Below, one piece after another: positions 21,775-27,349 of a stretch of DNA of 64,000 nucleotides. Positions within the stretch are counted from its first letter, which is position 1, and every line of letters starts with the position of its first letter. Origin of the DNA: an uncultured Alphaproteobacteria bacterium (GTDB lineage: Bacteria; Pseudomonadota; Alphaproteobacteria; Rs-D84). Position numbers and translations under genes: made by a program. The notes below the pieces were generated by a model, which saw only the letters and a list, made by a program, of their open reading frames with translations, had not been told where the DNA came from and did no database searches. The DNA lies in assembly GCA_944392595.1 (NCBI GenBank), contig CALXXD010000004.1:1-64000 (forward strand). Direction: 5' to 3'.

Positions 21775-21886
21775 CCTTATACCACACATAGTTTTACAAA
21801 CCACAACGAACAAAATTACAAAATAACACTCCTTATATTATGTATAGTTTTATGAGCCCTAGCGAATAAAACTATACATAATATAC
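21775..21886. repeat. Degenerate tandem duplication (period 56 bp) abutting dif
   Basis: Copy 1 (21775-21830) and copy 2 (21831-21886) both begin CCTTATA and share TAGTTTTA and CGAA(T/C)AAAA blocks in the same register, but differ at many positions. Copy 2 contains the XerD-side arm of dif. This could be the scar of an older insertion at dif. Confidence 0.45.
21836..21883. repeat. 18-bp perfect inverted repeat containing two XerD-type arms
   Basis: 21836-21853 is the exact reverse complement of 21866-21883, with a 12-nt loop. Each arm contains TTATGTATAGT, the XerD half-site of the adjacent dif, so the half-site is present twice in opposite orientation. Confidence 0.8.
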
Positions 21887-21898
21887 ATTATGCGCCAT
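21871..21898 (-). other. dif: Chromosome-dimer resolution site dif (XerCD site), prophage attachment junction
   Basis: On the minus strand the XerC-side arm is ATGGCGCATAA, the 6-bp centre TGTATA and the XerD-side arm TTATGTATAGT. Its core is identical over 20 bases to Escherichia coli dif as I remember it, including the whole central hexamer. It lies between a single-copy host gene (tlyA) and the prophage VP4 gene. The XerC-side arm faces the prophage, so this junction combines phage-side XerC flank with host centre and XerD arm and looks functional. Confidence 0.88.
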
Positions 21899-21910
21899 CC
21901 GGCGCTTTTT
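21892..21910 (+). terminator. Plus-strand terminator-like hairpin beside dif
   Basis: GCGCC ATCC GGCGC followed by TTTTTATA. It reads on the plus strand, against the prophage genes, and its left arm overlaps the XerC half-site of dif. It may insulate the prophage from transcription entering from the host side. Confidence 0.5.
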
Positions 21911-21913
21911 ATA

Positions 21914-21933
21914 AAACCTGTCGGCACAGGTCA
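21914..21933 (-). terminator. Terminator of the prophage gene cluster
   Basis: On the minus strand ACCTGT GCCG ACAGGT is followed by TTTATAAAAA, at the VP4 stop codon. Confidence 0.6.
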
Positions 21934-22698
21934 CTTTTTGGTTGAATAAAAATCCAACCTCTTACGAATTATCTTATCATTTATCTCAAAATTATCCAAA
22001 TGTTTTTTTAAAACATCTCTATCCTCAACAAAATGCTTAACAGGAATCCAATATTTTTCTTTATAATAACGCGGCAAACCTGATCTATAACCTTTACGCC
22101 AGATAAAACCATTATCTCGTAAAAATCGAACCATTTCAGGACTTAAATCTGAACCTATACCAGGACGACGAGACATTAAAACAAATTCATTCTGATAATC
22201 AGGATCTTCTTTCAATTTATCATCCAACGCCTTACCACGAAGCTTTTTTGTCATATATTTAGCAACATAAAAACAACTATCAGGCGTAACAGTACCAAGC
22301 TTTACATAACCTTTATCCCAATATTTCTGAATCAAATCAACCTCAGACGGGTCAACACCATATATAATCGCGTGATAATGTGGACGACCAAAACGATCAC
22401 CATACTCACCACACGCAAAATACCGAACAGAACGCTCCTTACGCAACCTCTTCCAAAATTTCTGTAAATCAGATTTTACAAGAACCGGAGAACCATAATC
22501 CTCACAAACATAACCAAGATGTTCTTCATCATAAGTCAAAGTAGCAAAACAAGCCTTATCGTGATGCTTTAACTCTTCCATCATACGTATTGACCATAAT
22601 TTACCATAATTAAGCCTACACGCTATACATTGTCCACAAGGTACACGGACAACCTCACCTACTCTATTACGCATAAGTAACGGACATAAGCATTTCAT
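21931..22698 (-). CDS. Microviridae replication initiation protein VP4 (HUH Rep)
   Basis: Rolling-circle initiator that nicks the origin of the double-stranded form. 255 aa from the ATG at 22698, which has AAGG eight bases upstream; ATGs at 22713 and 22752 are alternatives. The N-terminal VPCGQCIACRLNY cysteine motif and the RPHYHAIIYG HUH metal site are typical of gokushovirus VP4, as is the nucleophile helix YVAKYMTKKL. It is the last gene of the cluster and ends at a terminator beside dif. Confidence 0.93.
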   Translation of the reverse strand: MKCLCPLLMRNRVGEVVRVPCGQCIACRLNYGKLWSIRMMEELKHHDKACFATLTYDEEHLGYVCEDYGSPVLVKSDLQKFWKRLRKERSVRYFACGEYGDRFGRPHYHAIIYGVDPSEVDLIQKYWDKGYVKLGTVTPDSCFYVAKYMTKKLRGKALDDKLKEDPDYQNEFVLMSRRPGIGSDLSPEMVRFLRDNGFIWRKGYRSGLPRYYKEKYWIPVKHFVEDRDVLKKHLDNFEINDKIIRKRLDFYSTKK

Positions 22699-22742
22699 TT
22701 GACAAACCTTCATTAACCTGTTATAATACAGGTACCAACAAC

Positions 22743-22766
22743 GCCGGAACACACCGGCTTTTTTTA
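22743..22766 (+). terminator. GC-rich hairpin with T-run between VP4 and the Arg-rich genes
   Basis: GCCGG AACACA CCGGC followed by seven T on the plus strand. It lies upstream of VP4 and reads against the phage genes. Single-stranded phage genomes also use such hairpins structurally, so its role is open. Confidence 0.5.
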
Positions 22767-22862
22767 ATGCAGCATTGTGCCGTTCTTGTTAAACCAAACA
22801 GAACGACGAGAACGCTTAGCGTGACGATAAAACGAACGCAATCTTTTACGCAATTTTGACAT
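22764..22862 (-). CDS. Small Arg/Lys-rich protein (32 aa), candidate DNA-packaging protein
   Basis: Minus-strand ORF of 33 codons with AGGAG six bases before the ATG. The product begins MSKLRKRLRSFYRHAKRSRR and is about 40% Arg/Lys, then ends with a less basic VWFNKNGTMLH tail. Tiny basic proteins in microviruses (protein J of phiX174, the VP8-type proteins of gokushoviruses) bind the ssDNA genome during packaging. The position between VP2 and VP4 fits. Function inferred from composition and context. Confidence 0.7.
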   Translation of the reverse strand: MSKLRKRLRSFYRHAKRSRRSVWFNKNGTMLH

Positions 22863-22876
22863 TTAATACTCCTTTA

Positions 22877-22960
22877 TTAACGACGACCATAACGACGACC
22901 ATAACGACGGCCACGATATCCACGACGACGAAAACGACGTACTATTGACCGTAATTTCAT
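22877..22960 (-). CDS. Arginine-rich microprotein (27 aa)
   Basis: 28 codons on the minus strand with a near-perfect ribosome site (AAAGGAGGTG, eight bases before ATG). The product contains 14 Arg, with a GRRYGRRYGRR tail made of a repeated 4-residue unit. It is a second candidate ssDNA-condensing protein beside the 32-aa one. The strong ribosome site suggests high expression, as expected of a structural protein. The same bases carry a plus-strand promoter on the other strand. Confidence 0.7.
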   Translation of the reverse strand: MKLRSIVRRFRRRGYRGRRYGRRYGRR

Positions 22961-22988
22961 TGACTTCACCTCCTTTATGTGTTATACT
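22960..22988 (+). promoter_or_regulatory. Consensus sigma70 promoter opposing the phage genes
   Basis: TTGACT at 22960-22965, a 17-nt spacer and TATACT at 22983-22988 on the plus strand. It is stronger than any promoter I can see for the coding strand. The predicted start (about 22995) coincides with the ATG of a 23-codon ORF. Confidence 0.6.
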
Positions 22989-22994
22989 GTGTAT

Positions 22995-23066
22995 ATGAAA
23001 ACAATATTTAAAATAATAATATTCCTATTTATAATTTGTTTTATAGCAGGATTATTATCCGCTTAA
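22995..23066 (+). CDS. Possible leaderless 23-aa hydrophobic peptide, antisense to the phage genes
   Basis: ATG at the predicted transcription start of the plus-strand promoter. The product is MKTIFKIIIFLFIICF then IAGLLSA: two lysines and one long hydrophobic stretch, so a single-span membrane peptide. Its stop overlaps the VP2 stop by four bases, as if the two coding regions had been fitted together. It could be a lysis or toxin-like peptide, or merely a by-product of an antisense transcript. Coding status is uncertain. Confidence 0.4.
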   Translation: MKTIFKIIIFLFIICFIAGLLSA

Positions 23067-23644
23067 CGATTGCTCCAAAATCTCAAACTTTCAGATATTT
23101 CAGGAAGTTTGTCATAAACACGAGAATATCTAGACTTAAAAAAATCACCAACTTTAGAACCTATACTTTGCAAACCTGCAGCAGCAGTTTTAGTAGTATC
23201 AACACCAGGTGCAACACCAGGATGATCTCTATACCAATCAATGGTCATCTGAGTCAGTTGATTCTGTTTATCAACGCCATTCTTCTGCTCATTTATCAAT
23301 TCCTGCTGAGCCTTAGTCATACTGATATCAGTCTGCTGACGCTTTAAAGACAAAGCAGTACCTAATACATTCAAATCAGGATTCTGACTATTCGGAGCAG
23401 TTGTTTGAACAGCTGCACCAGAACTTGCAGCACCACCAGCTGCTAATAATGGATTCATACCGGCAGCTTTAAGATCTTTAACACGACGCTGAACCGCAGT
23501 ATCTTCACGATCGAATATTTGCTGCTGCAACTGCTTCTGATATTCCAAATTCTGTTTTTGAAAATTTATATTACGTTCATTATTGATAATACCACCAATA
23601 GTACTTATACCAGCACCAACAACAGAACTTATTCCTAAATCCAT
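23063..23644 (-). CDS. Microviridae DNA pilot protein VP2
   Basis: Minor virion protein that carries the genome across the host envelope. 193 aa. The N-terminal Gly/Ile-rich hydrophobic helix (GISSVVGAGISTIGGIINN) is followed by a Gln-rich coiled coil (NFQKQNLEYQKQLQQQIFD) and the conserved VKDLKAAGMNPLLAAGGAASSG, the family signature of gokushovirus VP2. AGGAG six bases before the ATG. Somewhat short for the family. Confidence 0.9.
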   Translation of the reverse strand: MDLGISSVVGAGISTIGGIINNERNINFQKQNLEYQKQLQQQIFDREDTAVQRRVKDLKAAGMNPLLAAGGAASSGAAVQTTAPNSQNPDLNVLGTALSLKRQQTDISMTKAQQELINEQKNGVDKQNQLTQMTIDWYRDHPGVAPGVDTTKTAAAGLQSIGSKVGDFFKSRYSRVYDKLPEISESLRFWSNR

Positions 23645-23662
23645 ATCAAACTCCTATAATAG

Positions 23663-23674
23663 GTCACCGGTGAC
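23663..23674. repeat. 12-bp perfect palindrome GTCACCGGTGAC
   Basis: Self-complementary sequence in the VP3-VP2 gap, 19 bases upstream of the VP2 start. It may be part of a regulatory or replication element of the phage. Confidence 0.5.
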
Positions 23675-23749
23675 AGGGCAATTTTTTCGTTTCAACATTT
23701 TAAGGATATGTACTAATAATTGCATCGTTTACTGCCACCGATGGTGTCA

Positions 23750-23787
23750 GTCCGCACAGTTACATCAAGTAGATCAACTGTGCGGAC
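23750..23787. repeat. 12-bp perfect stem with 14-nt loop between VP3-like and VP2 genes
   Basis: GTCCGCACAGTT (23750-23761) pairs perfectly with AACTGTGCGGAC (23776-23787). On the plus strand it is followed by CTGTTTTT. In the 149-bp gap between two phage genes it may be a replication origin element or a terminator. Confidence 0.65.
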
Positions 23788-23793
23788 CTGTTT

Positions 23794-24294
23794 TTAATCA
23801 TCGTTTGCTGCCTTGCTCGGCGGCGTGACGGACTCAATGGGAGCCCTCCGGTCGCCATCGTAGCCATCGCTTGCTTTTTGGAGAGCTGCTCCGGCTCCTT
23901 TGGCGCCGGTTTCCCCAGCACCGTCCTTACGCGCCGCCATCGACGCGGCAATACGGGACTCTACTCCATCAACCAGGTCCGCAGCGTCTTCGATCGTAAA
24001 GCCGGGAGCGGACGTTATATCATCGACGGCAGAATCTGCTTTGGCCGACAAATCGGCCAAAGTCGCCTCAGCGATTGCTGCATTAGTAGCTTCCGGAGTA
24101 CGACCGGGACGAACATTAATTTCGTGCTCTGGTATATCAAAATGCTGTTGTTTTGACATATCCAAAACCAAAGTACCATTACGCAAACCATCCATTATCT
24201 TACGCAAGGGCATAACCTGCTCCGGCTGCGTAATTGATTTACCTTTAACGGTTTCAGCCGGTATAACCGGACCAAAATTATATGCTGTTCTCAT
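23794..24294 (-). CDS. VP3-like internal scaffolding candidate
   Basis: 166 aa, directly downstream of VP1 with AAGGAG six bases before the ATG. It starts MRTAYNFGPVIPAETVKGKS. The middle is acidic and Ala-rich (about residues 70-130), predicted helical, and the C terminus is Gly/Ala/Lys-rich and flexible, as in scaffolding proteins. The coding sequence from about 23800 to 24100 is much more GC-rich than the other phage genes. I assign it as VP3 by position and composition; sequence identity to known VP3 proteins is not obvious to me. Confidence 0.6.
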   Translation of the reverse strand: MRTAYNFGPVIPAETVKGKSITQPEQVMPLRKIMDGLRNGTLVLDMSKQQHFDIPEHEINVRPGRTPEATNAAIAEATLADLSAKADSAVDDITSAPGFTIEDAADLVDGVESRIAASMAARKDGAGETGAKGAGAALQKASDGYDGDRRAPIESVTPPSKAANDD

Positions 24295-24304
24295 TTTTCA
24301 CTCC

Positions 24305-25861
24305 TTAAAAATGCCACGGGGTCGGGGATTTCGGTAATTCACGATAACACTTCAACCGGTGCAATATCTGAACAAAAGCATCAGACTCGGTTGTAACTTC
24401 CTTAATACGATCCGTATTCGGGGTACACTCGACAAAATTTTTGTTAAATACCGGTTTTGAATTAAATAATCGATTCAGATGCCAGAAAGATAAATCAGTA
24501 CGGAATTTACCGTGTACAGTATTCGACTTAAAACGCAATTCGTCATAAATAGTATTATACGAAAAGGTTTCGTCAGGATTATCAACCGGCGTCCAAGTAC
24601 CATTTTCCGGAGTTGTTAAATTACCACTAGAATCCAAATAAGCACCAGTATACAACGTTTTAATAGGTATATCACGCATACCTAAACGCGTAAACAACGG
24701 CCAAGGATAATCCAAAGCACTTTGACGCTGATATTCGGCAGGTATACCCTGCTGATATCCAGACTTAGGAACAAACGTCAAAATACCAATCAACCAACCG
24801 TGTTCTGTAAACGAACGCTTAAACAACCGACGACGATTTGCACCTATACCGTGACCAGCCATATTAGCCTGCGGAGACTGTTCTGTTGACTGTGAAGTCT
24901 GTAAAACTTCAGAAACAACAACAGGTACCTTCATCGAACCCAAATATTCAGCACGTTCAACACGACTATCAGGAGTAACAACTCCAAAATGAGCCAAAAC
25001 AAGCTCTGGATAACGAACACCGCCAAGAGCATTCAATTCCATCCATGATTGAACTTGTAAATAATTACGCCAATCATTCATGGGTATGCCAGAAACAGAA
25101 GATAAATCAGCAAAAAGATTTGGTTGTAATGAACCTGTTAAATTTATTGCTGCAAGCTCATCGCTACCATTAATATTCATAGTATAATTTAATTTGTCTT
25201 CTAAGGCAGCATGACTAGCTTCAATTACAAGAACATTGTTTTTATTTGGGTCTTCACCTTCGGCATTTGTATTAAGATCAATATATAAAGGTGCGGATGT
25301 TCCCAATGGCATAACAACCTGAGGACCACGCTGCGTAAATGGCAAAGACGAAGTATAGTAGTCAAGCTCCCAAGTAGTACGCTTCATAGTATTATCATCC
25401 AAATCAACCTCATCAGGAACTTGATTCTGTGGACGATACCAATCATTATAAACCTTATTATATGCTCGCAAAGGCAACATCGAAAACATACCTGCATCAT
25501 AAACACCAGGATTGACATTTAACCAATCCCATACTGAACCAACTTCAACTGTATAATCATCAGGATTCATTGGTACAGTAACCTCTGATTGACCATTAGG
25601 ACCAGCAGATATCATTTCATCAAAATCGTCCATAATAGTCCAATCACGTACAAAAAACACACGTATATAAGCAGTCATTTCATGCATAACAGGACGTATC
25701 ATTGGAGCCATTCTGATTAACATTTCATCAGACAATTCAAAAGTATCACCTGGTATAATTTCCTCATGTAAAACAGGATACATCAAACCCATTGATATAT
25801 CACCTTTCACATCGTGAGTCCGGTCGTAATACGACCGAGCCGGCATTTTAATCTTAGGCAT
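24305..25861 (-). CDS. Microviridae major capsid protein VP1
   Basis: 518 aa. Recognisable by the N-terminal FELSDEMLIRMAPMIRPVMHEM block with PGDTF, the LPLRAYNKVYNDWYRPQNQ motif, the DYYTSSLPFTQRGPQVVMPLG block and the conserved ELNALGGVRYPELVLAHFGV and GHGIG region. These are the hallmarks of the gokushovirus F-type jelly-roll capsid protein. AAGGAG precedes the ATG, and the start overlaps the upstream VP5-like gene by 8 nt. No truncation or frameshift visible. Confidence 0.97.
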   Translation of the reverse strand: MPKIKMPARSYYDRTHDVKGDISMGLMYPVLHEEIIPGDTFELSDEMLIRMAPMIRPVMHEMTAYIRVFFVRDWTIMDDFDEMISAGPNGQSEVTVPMNPDDYTVEVGSVWDWLNVNPGVYDAGMFSMLPLRAYNKVYNDWYRPQNQVPDEVDLDDNTMKRTTWELDYYTSSLPFTQRGPQVVMPLGTSAPLYIDLNTNAEGEDPNKNNVLVIEASHAALEDKLNYTMNINGSDELAAINLTGSLQPNLFADLSSVSGIPMNDWRNYLQVQSWMELNALGGVRYPELVLAHFGVVTPDSRVERAEYLGSMKVPVVVSEVLQTSQSTEQSPQANMAGHGIGANRRRLFKRSFTEHGWLIGILTFVPKSGYQQGIPAEYQRQSALDYPWPLFTRLGMRDIPIKTLYTGAYLDSSGNLTTPENGTWTPVDNPDETFSYNTIYDELRFKSNTVHGKFRTDLSFWHLNRLFNSKPVFNKNFVECTPNTDRIKEVTTESDAFVQILHRLKCYRELPKSPTPWHF

Positions 25862-26192
25862 TACGTGCTCCTTTCCAATTTCTTATCATTTCTTCCAAAC
25901 GATAATTTTGATTCTCTTTCCACTGGTCAACATAGTCCTTACCGTCAAAAACAATTTCACGAGTAACACCATCAACCAGAACAAAATCCTTAACCATACA
26001 CAAAGGCAAACGATCCAAACTGTTACAAAAAGAACGAACAGCTGACTTTACATTTCCGGAACTAAAAAAGGACACCATATCACCAGATACAGAATCCATA
26101 CCAAAATAAGGATGAATTAAAACTTTCTTTGCCAATTCTTCCAAATCAACAATACCGGTATTGTCTTGCAATTCTTGAATTTCTCCTTCCAT
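25854..26192 (-). CDS. VP5-like small phage protein (112 aa)
   Basis: Starts at the ATG at 26192 (MEGEIQEL), chosen because AGGAG lies six bases upstream; an in-frame ATG at 26231 has no ribosome site. The C-terminal half, with NVKSAVRSFCNSLDRL then KDFVLVDGVTREIVFDGKD, resembles the gokushovirus VP5 pattern (an A-R-F helix, then a D-x-x-L strand and a short acidic turn). In known gokushoviruses VP5 is a non-structural protein that controls the switch to ssDNA synthesis. Assignment moderate. Confidence 0.6.
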   Translation of the reverse strand: MEGEIQELQDNTGIVDLEELAKKVLIHPYFGMDSVSGDMVSFFSSGNVKSAVRSFCNSLDRLPLCMVKDFVLVDGVTREIVFDGKDYVDQWKENQNYRLEEMIRNWKGARNA

Positions 26193-26233
26193 TTCTTTCT
26201 CCTTTTTTAAAATGTAATCAATAAGATTCATGA

Positions 26234-26320
26234 TCAAAATATCCCGAAAAAACCACCAACAGTACCTATCAACGAAGACAGACACGTAATAATTAAAGTC
26301 CACCACTGTTTAGAATTCAT
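26234..26320 (-). CDS. 28-aa membrane peptide at the head of the phage operon
   Basis: 29 codons on the minus strand with TAGGAG seven bases before the ATG. The product MNSKQWWTLIITCLSSLIG is followed by TVGGFFGIF, one hydrophobic span with two Trp at the interface. First gene after the attachment hairpin. Small single-span peptides of ssDNA phages can inhibit murein synthesis (protein E, Sgl proteins), so lysis is a possible but unproven role. Confidence 0.55.
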   Translation of the reverse strand: MNSKQWWTLIITCLSSLIGTVGGFFGIF

Positions 26321-26344
26321 TTTTTTACTCCTATAGGAACCAGA

Positions 26345-26408
26345 TAAGCGCATAATGCGGATTATGTTCAGCTACGCTCAACATAATCACCGACACATTA
26401 TGCGCCTT
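26345..26408. other. Inverted pair of dif-like sites: folded attP-type hairpin, right prophage junction
   Basis: On the plus strand at 26345-26372 there is TAAGCGCATAA, centre TGCGGA, arm TTATGTTCAGC. On the minus strand at 26376-26408 there is AAGGCGCATAA, an 11-nt centre TGTGTCGGTGA, and arm TTATGTTGAGC. The two halves pair into a stem of 10 bp plus 8 bp with unequal central strands and a small apical hairpin. The left dif shares GGCGCATAATGT with the minus-strand copy, which is consistent with XerC-mediated exchange at that point. Confidence 0.8.
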
Positions 26409-26785: not shown

Positions 26786-27349
26786 TTACCGCGATTTTCG
26801 GGCGATTTTAGTAATTTTTGTAATCTTATTCTTGGCGGCACGGGTTACCGTTTGGATTCCACGTTCCAAATCGCTGGGTTGGGCGGGCACAATCTGCCCC
26901 GCCTGCAATTTAGAACAACAATTCGGACATTTGGTCGCCTGGATATTGATTGTCGATTTGCAATACGGGCAAGTCCGCGTAGTAACCGCCTTTTTTGCGC
27001 GCACTTTATTCATAATACGCACCATTAAAAACACCGCGAACATAGTGATTATAAAACTGACCACAGTATTCAAAAACACACCGATATTCATGGTCGCTGC
27101 GCCCGCGGCTTGGGCCTCGGCCACGGTGTTATAGTGCGCGCCCGGTTCCCCACCAGATAAAACGATAAAAAATTGAGAAAAATCAATATCACCAACCAGC
27201 ATCCCAATTGGTGGCATAATCACATCTTTGACCAACGAATTAACCATAGTTGTCATAACGCTGCCGACGATGATACCGACGGCCATATCGATTGCGCTGC
27301 CACGTTCCAAAAACGTCCGGAATTCGGACAAGAATTTACTTTTCGCCAT
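26786..27349 (-). CDS. mscL: Large-conductance mechanosensitive channel with C-terminal zinc ribbon
   Basis: Inner-membrane tension-gated channel that vents solutes on osmotic downshock. 187 aa versus about 135 for typical MscL. Residues 1-115 are standard MscL: FLERGSAIDMAVGIIVGS with the pore helix, KDVIMPPIGML, then the second helix around VVSFIITMFAVFLMVRIMN. Residues 127-144 add CPYC...CPNC, a rubredoxin-like zinc ribbon, followed by a basic tail. The addition is in the cytoplasmic part, where MscL has its helical bundle. It starts two bases after the aroK stop, so the two genes form an operon. Confidence 0.93.
   Translation of the reverse strand: MAKSKFLSEFRTFLERGSAIDMAVGIIVGSVMTTMVNSLVKDVIMPPIGMLVGDIDFSQFFIVLSGGEPGAHYNTVAEAQAAGAATMNIGVFLNTVVSFIITMFAVFLMVRIMNKVRAKKAVTTRTCPYCKSTINIQATKCPNCCSKLQAGQIVPAQPSDLERGIQTVTRAAKNKITKITKIARKSR

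What the first reader, a model, noticed from the sequence alone, without database searches (positions are those of the whole stretch)
26345..26408. Folded attP-type hairpin suggests single-stranded DNA integration by XerC, as in CTXphi
The right prophage end holds two dif-like sites facing each other, one with a 6-nt centre (TGCGGA) and one with an 11-nt centre (TGTGTCGGTGA). In ssDNA the XerC and XerD arms pair into a stem with unequal central strands. This is the architecture known from the CTXphi attP, where XerC joins the folded virion strand to dif. Coding (minus) strand equals virion sense in microviruses. The first three central bases (TGT) match dif, as strand exchange beside the XerC arm requires.
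Basis: partly seen in the sequence, partly recalled or inferred. Interest (0 to 1): 0.88.

Follow-up and report, generated by a model that had tools for sequence, protein, structure and literature searches.

The report
Folded Xer attachment site in microvirus
A tiny single-stranded-DNA phage (a microvirus) carries a stretch of DNA that folds back on itself into a copy of the bacterial chromosome's dif site, and evidence from eleven related elements suggests that the host's XerC enzyme uses the folded form to insert the element into the chromosome, as the unrelated cholera phage CTXphi does.

Summary
The minus strand of 26408-26345 is two dif-like sites facing each other (centres of 11 and 6 nt, 3-nt loop). 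It folds as ssDNA at -19.7 kcal/mol, z -6.9, beating 200/200 shuffles. It lies at the mscL-side junction of a 4,510-bp microvirus prophage; the reconstituted host dif lies at the other end.

The same hairpin occurs in four free circular microviruses, two other prophages and four copies of an undescribed 1.5-kb element. The two halves covary: 100% of stem cells pair, three pairs change on both sides, and slid controls give none. The long centre begins TNT in 11/11, as dif variants do. In one relative, different host and element XerC arms place the crossover exactly at the XerC cut. The host encodes XerC- and XerD-like proteins. The arrangement matches CTXphi attP1/attP2.

Limits: no biochemistry was possible. 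The closest free relatives (58% capsid identity) carry an ordinary duplex dif, so the hairpin behaves as a swappable cassette. In one prophage the hairpin faces against the genes, so 'virion strand' is not universal and cruciform extrusion stays open. Krupovic and Forterre (2011) already noted inverted dif-like pairs in three Prevotella microviruses. New variant of a known kind.

The parts
21888..26397 (-). Microvirus (gokushovirus-like) prophage, 4,510 bp, from the first base of the long attP centre to the last base of its own XerC arm
   Evidence: junctions read from sequence; capsid, pilot and Rep families
26398..26408 (-). Host XerC arm of dif (AAGGCGCATAA), now next to the hairpin (attR)
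   Evidence: the AAAAGGCGCATAA flank is conserved at prophage-free sites of relatives
26387..26397 (-). Long central region of attP1 (TGTGTCGGTGA); its first bases TGT match dif
   Evidence: CTXphi attP1 centre TGTGGCGCGGCA
26376..26386 (-). XerD arm of attP1 (TTATGTTGAGC); near-identical to CTXphi attP1's TTATGTTGAGG and unlike this host's TTATGTATAGT
26362..26372 (-). Inverted XerD arm of attP2 (GCTGAACATAA); pairs with attP1 apart from one conserved G.G mismatch
26356..26361 (-). Short central region of attP2 (TCCGCA; TGCGGA on the other strand)
26348..26355 (-). Inverted XerC arm of attP2 (TTATGCGC)
21871..21898 (-). Reconstituted dif (attL): phage XerC arm ATGGCGCATAA, host centre TGTATA, host XerD arm TTATGTATAGT
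   Evidence: single copy in the genome; same dif in 166 of 201 genomes of the order
21834..21885 (-). Host hairpin: inverted copy of the XerD arm behind dif; a host feature, not phage
   Evidence: present at most prophage-free dif sites of the genus
24305..25861 (-). Major capsid protein VP1 (518 aa)
   Evidence: phrog_514, E 5e-127
23063..23644 (-). DNA pilot protein VP2 (193 aa)
   Evidence: phrog_11693, E 2e-15
21931..22752 (-). Rolling-circle replication initiator VP4 (273 aa)
   Evidence: phrog_942, E 4e-81
23794..24294 (-). Conserved small protein (166 aa), 49-50% identical in L017/L018
   Evidence: no family hit
25854..26306 (-). Conserved small ORF between attP and VP1, 54-56% identical in L017/L018
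   Evidence: no family hit

Best explanation
The hairpin is the attachment site of a small temperate microvirus. As a single strand, its two inverted dif-like halves pair into one dif-like duplex: XerC arm, a central region with a 4-6 nt bulge on one strand, and a XerD arm with a fixed G.G mismatch. Host XerC and XerD bring the folded site together with chromosomal dif. XerC cuts between the XerC arm and the central region and swaps one strand, helped by the matching first bases (TGT, in general TNT). XerD-side exchange is not expected because that side does not match. Replication or repair then makes the inserted strand double-stranded. The result is the hairpin next to the host XerC arm and an intact dif at the far end. 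Shown here: anatomy, conservation, pairing constraint, junction position, presence of XerC- and XerD-like genes. Inferred: single-stranded substrate, use of the virion strand, XerC-only catalysis, irreversibility.
For: Folding: z -6.2 to -9.5 in nine of the hairpins against -2 to -3 for duplex-type relatives. Pair counts on 11 elements: 100% of cells paired, 3 pairs and 5 cells changed on both sides (0/500 shuffles reach the cell count or score; slid controls 0). Between two 86%-identical mini-elements three stem pairs change on both sides while both centres stay identical: GCGCATAA/TTATGCGC to GCGTATAA/TTATACGC and GTTGC/GCAAC to TTTAC/GTAAA. Junction: in L219 the host arm GCGCATAA sits by the hairpin and the element's own GCGTATAA, which pairs with its TTATACGC, sits at the far side, so the crossover is at the XerC cut. 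The long centre starts TGT (9), TTT (1) or TAT (1); dif centres in the order start mainly TGT, TAT or TTT. XerC-like and XerD-like proteins are encoded by the host. CTXphi: centres of 12 and 5-7 nt, same TGT start, same XerD arm, duplex attP1 unusable because of its long centre.
Against: No experiment. Closest free relatives carry a duplex dif instead. In prophage B of L020 the hairpin polarity is opposite to the genes, so there the joined strand would be the non-virion strand unless a later inversion happened. Independent lineages are few (about four), and most stem pairs never vary. The match at the XerC side is only three bases in the window itself.
Confidence: 0.74

Rival explanations
1. 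The hairpin is used, but extruded as a cruciform from the double-stranded replicative form, so either strand can be joined to dif, as proposed for integron attC sites (own knowledge).
For: Explains the pairing constraint equally well and also explains L020 prophage B, whose hairpin faces against its genes.
Against: Six of seven integrated elements and all four free genomes have the long centre 5' on the coding strand, as virion-strand use predicts. Lineages are few, so this is weak.
Confidence: 0.17
2. Ordinary duplex Xer integration of the VGJphi kind through one of the two sites; the inverted repeat is incidental or has another role.
For: Related microviruses integrate at the same dif with duplex sites (L017, L018, L023, L061-L065). 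E. coli gokushovirus EC6098 needs XerC and XerD, its legend shows dsDNA integration, and it excises (PMC7062461).
Against: A duplex site with a 10-13 bp centre is considered unusable (PMC4246890), yet it is the one found at the junction. The two halves covary, which a duplex site does not need.
Confidence: 0.06
3. The hairpin is a transcription terminator after rep or part of the replication origin, and only happens to resemble dif.
For: It lies just behind rep in all free genomes.
Against: No T-run follows; it sits exactly at the dif junction in all seven integrated elements; its arms follow host dif variants; it occurs in 1.5-kb elements with no rep.
Confidence: 0.03

Closest known systems
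CTXphi attP(+) of Vibrio cholerae (CTXphi-type element exploiting Xer, Inoviridae)
   Same: Two inverted dif-like sites; long centre (12 nt) starting TGT and short centre (5-7 nt); XerD arm TTATGTTGAG; homology to dif on the XerC side only; mispairing at XerD-arm positions 8-9; new dif at one end.
   Different: Icosahedral microvirus, not filamentous; loop of 3-7 nt (33 nt in one case) instead of about 90; alphaproteobacterial host.
Bacteroidetes microvirus proviruses BMV4-6 (Krupovic and Forterre 2011, PMC3091885)
   Same: Microviridae at dif; an additional dif-like site near one terminus, described there as reminiscent of CTXphi.
   Different: Different subfamily and hosts (Prevotella); no folding or covariation test in the passages read.
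E. coli gokushovirus EC6098 (Kirchberger and Ochman 2020, PMC7062461)
   Same: Gokushovirus-type phage integrating at dif, requiring XerC and XerD; spacer and XerD arm diverge.
   Different: Described as a single dif motif with dsDNA integration and frequent excision; whether it has an inverted partner was not checked.
VGJphi and TLCphi (duplex Xer elements)
   Same: Host XerC/XerD, integration at dif.
   Different: Single duplex attP; here two inverted sites with an over-long centre.

Membership tests
CTXphi-type element exploiting Xer (folded attP) | Two dif-like sites in opposite orientation whose arms pair in one strand | tested here: met
CTXphi-type element exploiting Xer (folded attP) | Long centre (about 12 nt) in attP1, 5-7 nt in attP2 | tested here: met
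   11/6 here; 9-13 and 6-7 in relatives
CTXphi-type element exploiting Xer (folded attP) | Match to dif next to the XerC arm, none on the XerD side | tested here: met
   TGT against dif TGTATA; XerD side unmatched
CTXphi-type element exploiting Xer (folded attP) | Integration product: hairpin at the XerC side, dif regenerated at the other end | tested here: met
CTXphi-type element exploiting Xer (folded attP) | The (+) virion strand is the strand integrated | tested here: inconclusive
   orientation fits in 6 of 7 integrated elements; L020 B does not
CTXphi-type element exploiting Xer (folded attP) | Only XerC catalysis needed; prophage does not excise | not testable with these tools
   needs recombination assays
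CTXphi-type element exploiting Xer (folded attP) | Filamentous phage (Inoviridae) genome, as in the known examples | tested here: not met
   microvirus capsid, pilot and Rep genes; works like CTXphi but is not of its virus family
Microviridae (gokushovirus-like) | VP1 capsid, VP2 pilot and VP4 replication genes on one strand in a 4-6 kb genome | tested here: met
VGJphi-type | Single duplex attP with a normal-length centre | tested here: not met
   two inverted sites, 11-nt centre at the junction

The most novel reading that the evidence does not exclude
The folded Xer attachment site is a portable cassette shared by unrelated replicons of one bacterial clade: at least three microvirus lineages and a family of 1.5-kb, three-gene elements with no known genes. 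The latter would be satellites that travel and integrate as folded single strands.
Probability: 0.4. Interest if true: 0.8.

Novelty: new variant of a known kind. Interest (0 to 1): 0.64.

Why it matters
Folded-strand integration by Xer is established mainly for CTXphi and inferred for a few other filamentous phages. Comparative evidence that icosahedral microviruses use the same fold, with compensatory changes and a naturally marked crossover, would make it a general strategy of ssDNA phages. It bears on how microviruses integrate, which Kirchberger and Ochman (2020) left unresolved. The hairpins are short enough to test as oligonucleotides with purified XerC/XerD. The finding also shows that folded and duplex attachment sites are exchanged between close relatives, which suggests that a phage can switch between a stable and a reversible integration mode by swapping about 60 bases.

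Tried and rejected
IMG/VR and GTDB scans with the capsid alignment gave only distant or already known loci; the broad alignment was too diverse to search with. The microvirus capsid profile over 385 genomes drawn from the class found one more prophage, at a contig end and not usable. The left-end inverted repeat (21834-21885) was first taken as a possible second phage hairpin; prophage-free relatives show it is a host feature. The second repeat in L024 is likewise probably the host hairpin. A later XerC inversion between attP2 and dif was considered for the L020 B orientation; it is possible, but its capsid sister L065 carries its dif on the same (non-coding) strand, so inherited orientation is as likely. 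A terminator or origin role was rejected for lack of a T-run and because the 1.5-kb elements lack rep. Sharing between the 1.5-kb element and microviruses beyond the hairpin: only short chance-like matches. EC6098 itself was not located in the collections, so its attP was not inspected.

Full report
What is there. The window is from a 977-kb alphaproteobacterial assembly, 98.7% complete. A contig matching the related genome G153 is titled 'uncultured Rickettsiales bacterium' in the public record. Between mscL/aroK and tlyA/leuS sits a microvirus prophage on the minus strand: VP1 capsid, VP2 pilot protein, VP4 Rep and two small conserved proteins. It is 4,510 bp from junction to junction. At the mscL side is the reported hairpin (26408-26345, minus); at the other side is an intact dif, GGCGCATAA-TGTATA-TTATGTATAG, the only copy in the genome and the dif of 166 of 201 genomes of the order.

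attP1 = GGCGCATAA / TGTGTCGGTGA (11) / TTATGTTGAGC, loop GTA, attP2 inverted = GCTGAACATAA / TCCGCA (6) / TTATGCGC. As DNA at 37 C it folds at -19.7 to -19.8 kcal/mol, z about -6.9, better than 200 of 200 shuffles. The fold is a dif-like duplex with a bulge in the long-centre strand and a single G.G mismatch at position 8 of the XerD arm.

Relatives. The same architecture was found in four complete free circular microviruses (MG945252, MG945584, OM869494, PQ006644), in prophages of G153 (L022) and G176 (L020, prophage B), and in four copies of a 1.49-1.50 kb element at dif in G117, G133, G166 and G168. In the free genomes and L022 the hairpin lies directly behind rep.

Selection for pairing. 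On an arms-only alignment of the 11 elements 100% of stem cells are standard pairs and three pairs have changes on both sides; no shuffle reaches the covariation score or the number of two-sided cells, and sliding the partner by 1-3 columns leaves 24-46% paired and no two-sided change (with CTXphi in place of two of the mini-elements, four such pairs). The alignment is short, has six distinct rows, and the pair-type counts alone do not exceed shuffles, so the clearest case is the pairwise one. Between the G117 and G133 elements (86% identical overall) the XerC stem changes C-G to T-A on both sides and the inner stem changes GTTGC/GCAAC to TTTAC/GTAAA, two further two-sided changes, while both central regions are unchanged. 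A duplex site has no need for the two halves to match each other. The G133 host dif has the same GCGTATAA arm.

Where the crossover is. In G166 (L219) the arm beside the hairpin is the host type GCGCATAA, whereas the arm at the far end is GCGTATAA, which pairs with the element's own TTATACGC. The element's XerC arm has therefore moved to the far junction and the host's has joined the long centre: the exchange is between XerC arm and centre, the XerC cut. In the window the two XerC-side flanks (host ATATAAAAGG, phage CGCCGGATGG) say the same to within the shared GGCGCATAATGT. All dif-specific bases on the XerD side stay with the host, so XerD-side exchange did not occur.

Specificity. The first three bases of the long centre are TGT in nine elements, TTT in PQ006644 and TAT in L020 B; dif centres in the order are TGTATA, TATATA, TTTATA and rarely GATATA. 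In CTXphi, base pairing next to the XerC site alone decides the target (PMC3089051, PMC4246890). The host encodes one XerC-like and one XerD-like recombinase, each scoring best against the model of that name among the two, though below NCBI's equivalog cut-offs.

Comparison with CTXphi. Table II of PMC3089051 gives attP1 AGTGCGTATTA-TGTGGCGCGGCA-TTATGTTGAGG and attP2 AATGCGTATTA-TACGCCA-TTATGTTACGG. The window site has the same order, the same TGT start, similar centre lengths and the same XerD arm core TTATGTTGAG, which is not the XerD arm of its own host's dif (TTATGTATAG). The CTXphi arms also mispair at XerD-arm positions 8-9. The long-centred duplex is reported to be unusable by Xer, which is why folding is the natural reading.

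What does not fit. (1) The nearest free relatives of this phage (PQ006233, PQ006487; 57-58% VP1, 56-60% Rep) have an ordinary duplex dif-like site in the same place behind rep, while its hairpin is 94% identical to that of MG945252, whose VP1 is about 31% and Rep about 24% identical. On VP1 and Rep trees the folded type needs three changes. The attP is thus exchanged as a cassette, or has arisen repeatedly. (2) In L020 B the polarity of the hairpin is opposite to the genes, so either the non-virion strand was joined, a cruciform in dsDNA was used, or an inversion followed. Duplex-type phages show both orientations. (3) No biochemical test was possible.

Known before. Krupovic and Forterre (2011, PMC3091885) reported a second dif-like site in BMV4-6 and called it reminiscent of CTXphi. 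Kirchberger and Ochman (2020, PMC7062461) showed XerC/XerD-dependent integration of an E. coli gokushovirus, drew it as dsDNA and left the mechanism open. Paper searches found no report of a folded attP tested in a microvirus, within the open-access library only.

Verdict. The fold and its use as the Xer attachment site are well supported (about 0.9). XerC-side strand exchange is supported by the junctions. Use of the ssDNA virion strand is likely but not proven. New variant of a known kind; interest 0.64.

Noticed in passing
L205:3850-5345, L210, L219:1172-2675, L220:1172-2667: Undescribed 1.49-1.50 kb element with three intact small ORFs (about 115, 109-117, 113 aa; no Pfam or PHROG match above noise, the two ORFs searched have no phage match) integrated at dif by the same folded attP in four species; a 64%-identical ORF3 homologue lies in L221. 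Candidate ssDNA satellite.
   Followed up: partly
21834-21885: Host dif of this genus is followed by an inverted copy of its XerD arm (TATATTATGTATAGTTT..AAACTATACATAATATA) with a variable loop, at most prophage-free sites inspected; function unknown.
   Followed up: partly
L020:14697-14784: Folded attP whose polarity is opposite to the phage genes; centre TATCCAGAA matches dif variant TATATA rather than the TGTATA next to it.
   Followed up: partly
L061-L065: Larger microviruses (4.9-6.6 kb) carry a full or nearly full duplex copy of this host clade's dif on the strand opposite to their genes, so they probably infect the same clade.
   Followed up: partly
L023:3967-13400: Two tandem copies of one microvirus prophage separated by dif-like sites (G147).
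   Followed up: no
L020:5394-14784: Two different microvirus prophages side by side at one dif, one with a duplex and one with a folded attP, in opposite gene orientation.
   Followed up: partly
26786-27349: MscL channel with a C-terminal stretch resembling a zinc ribbon (CPYC..CPNC; Pfam match below cut-off).
   Followed up: no
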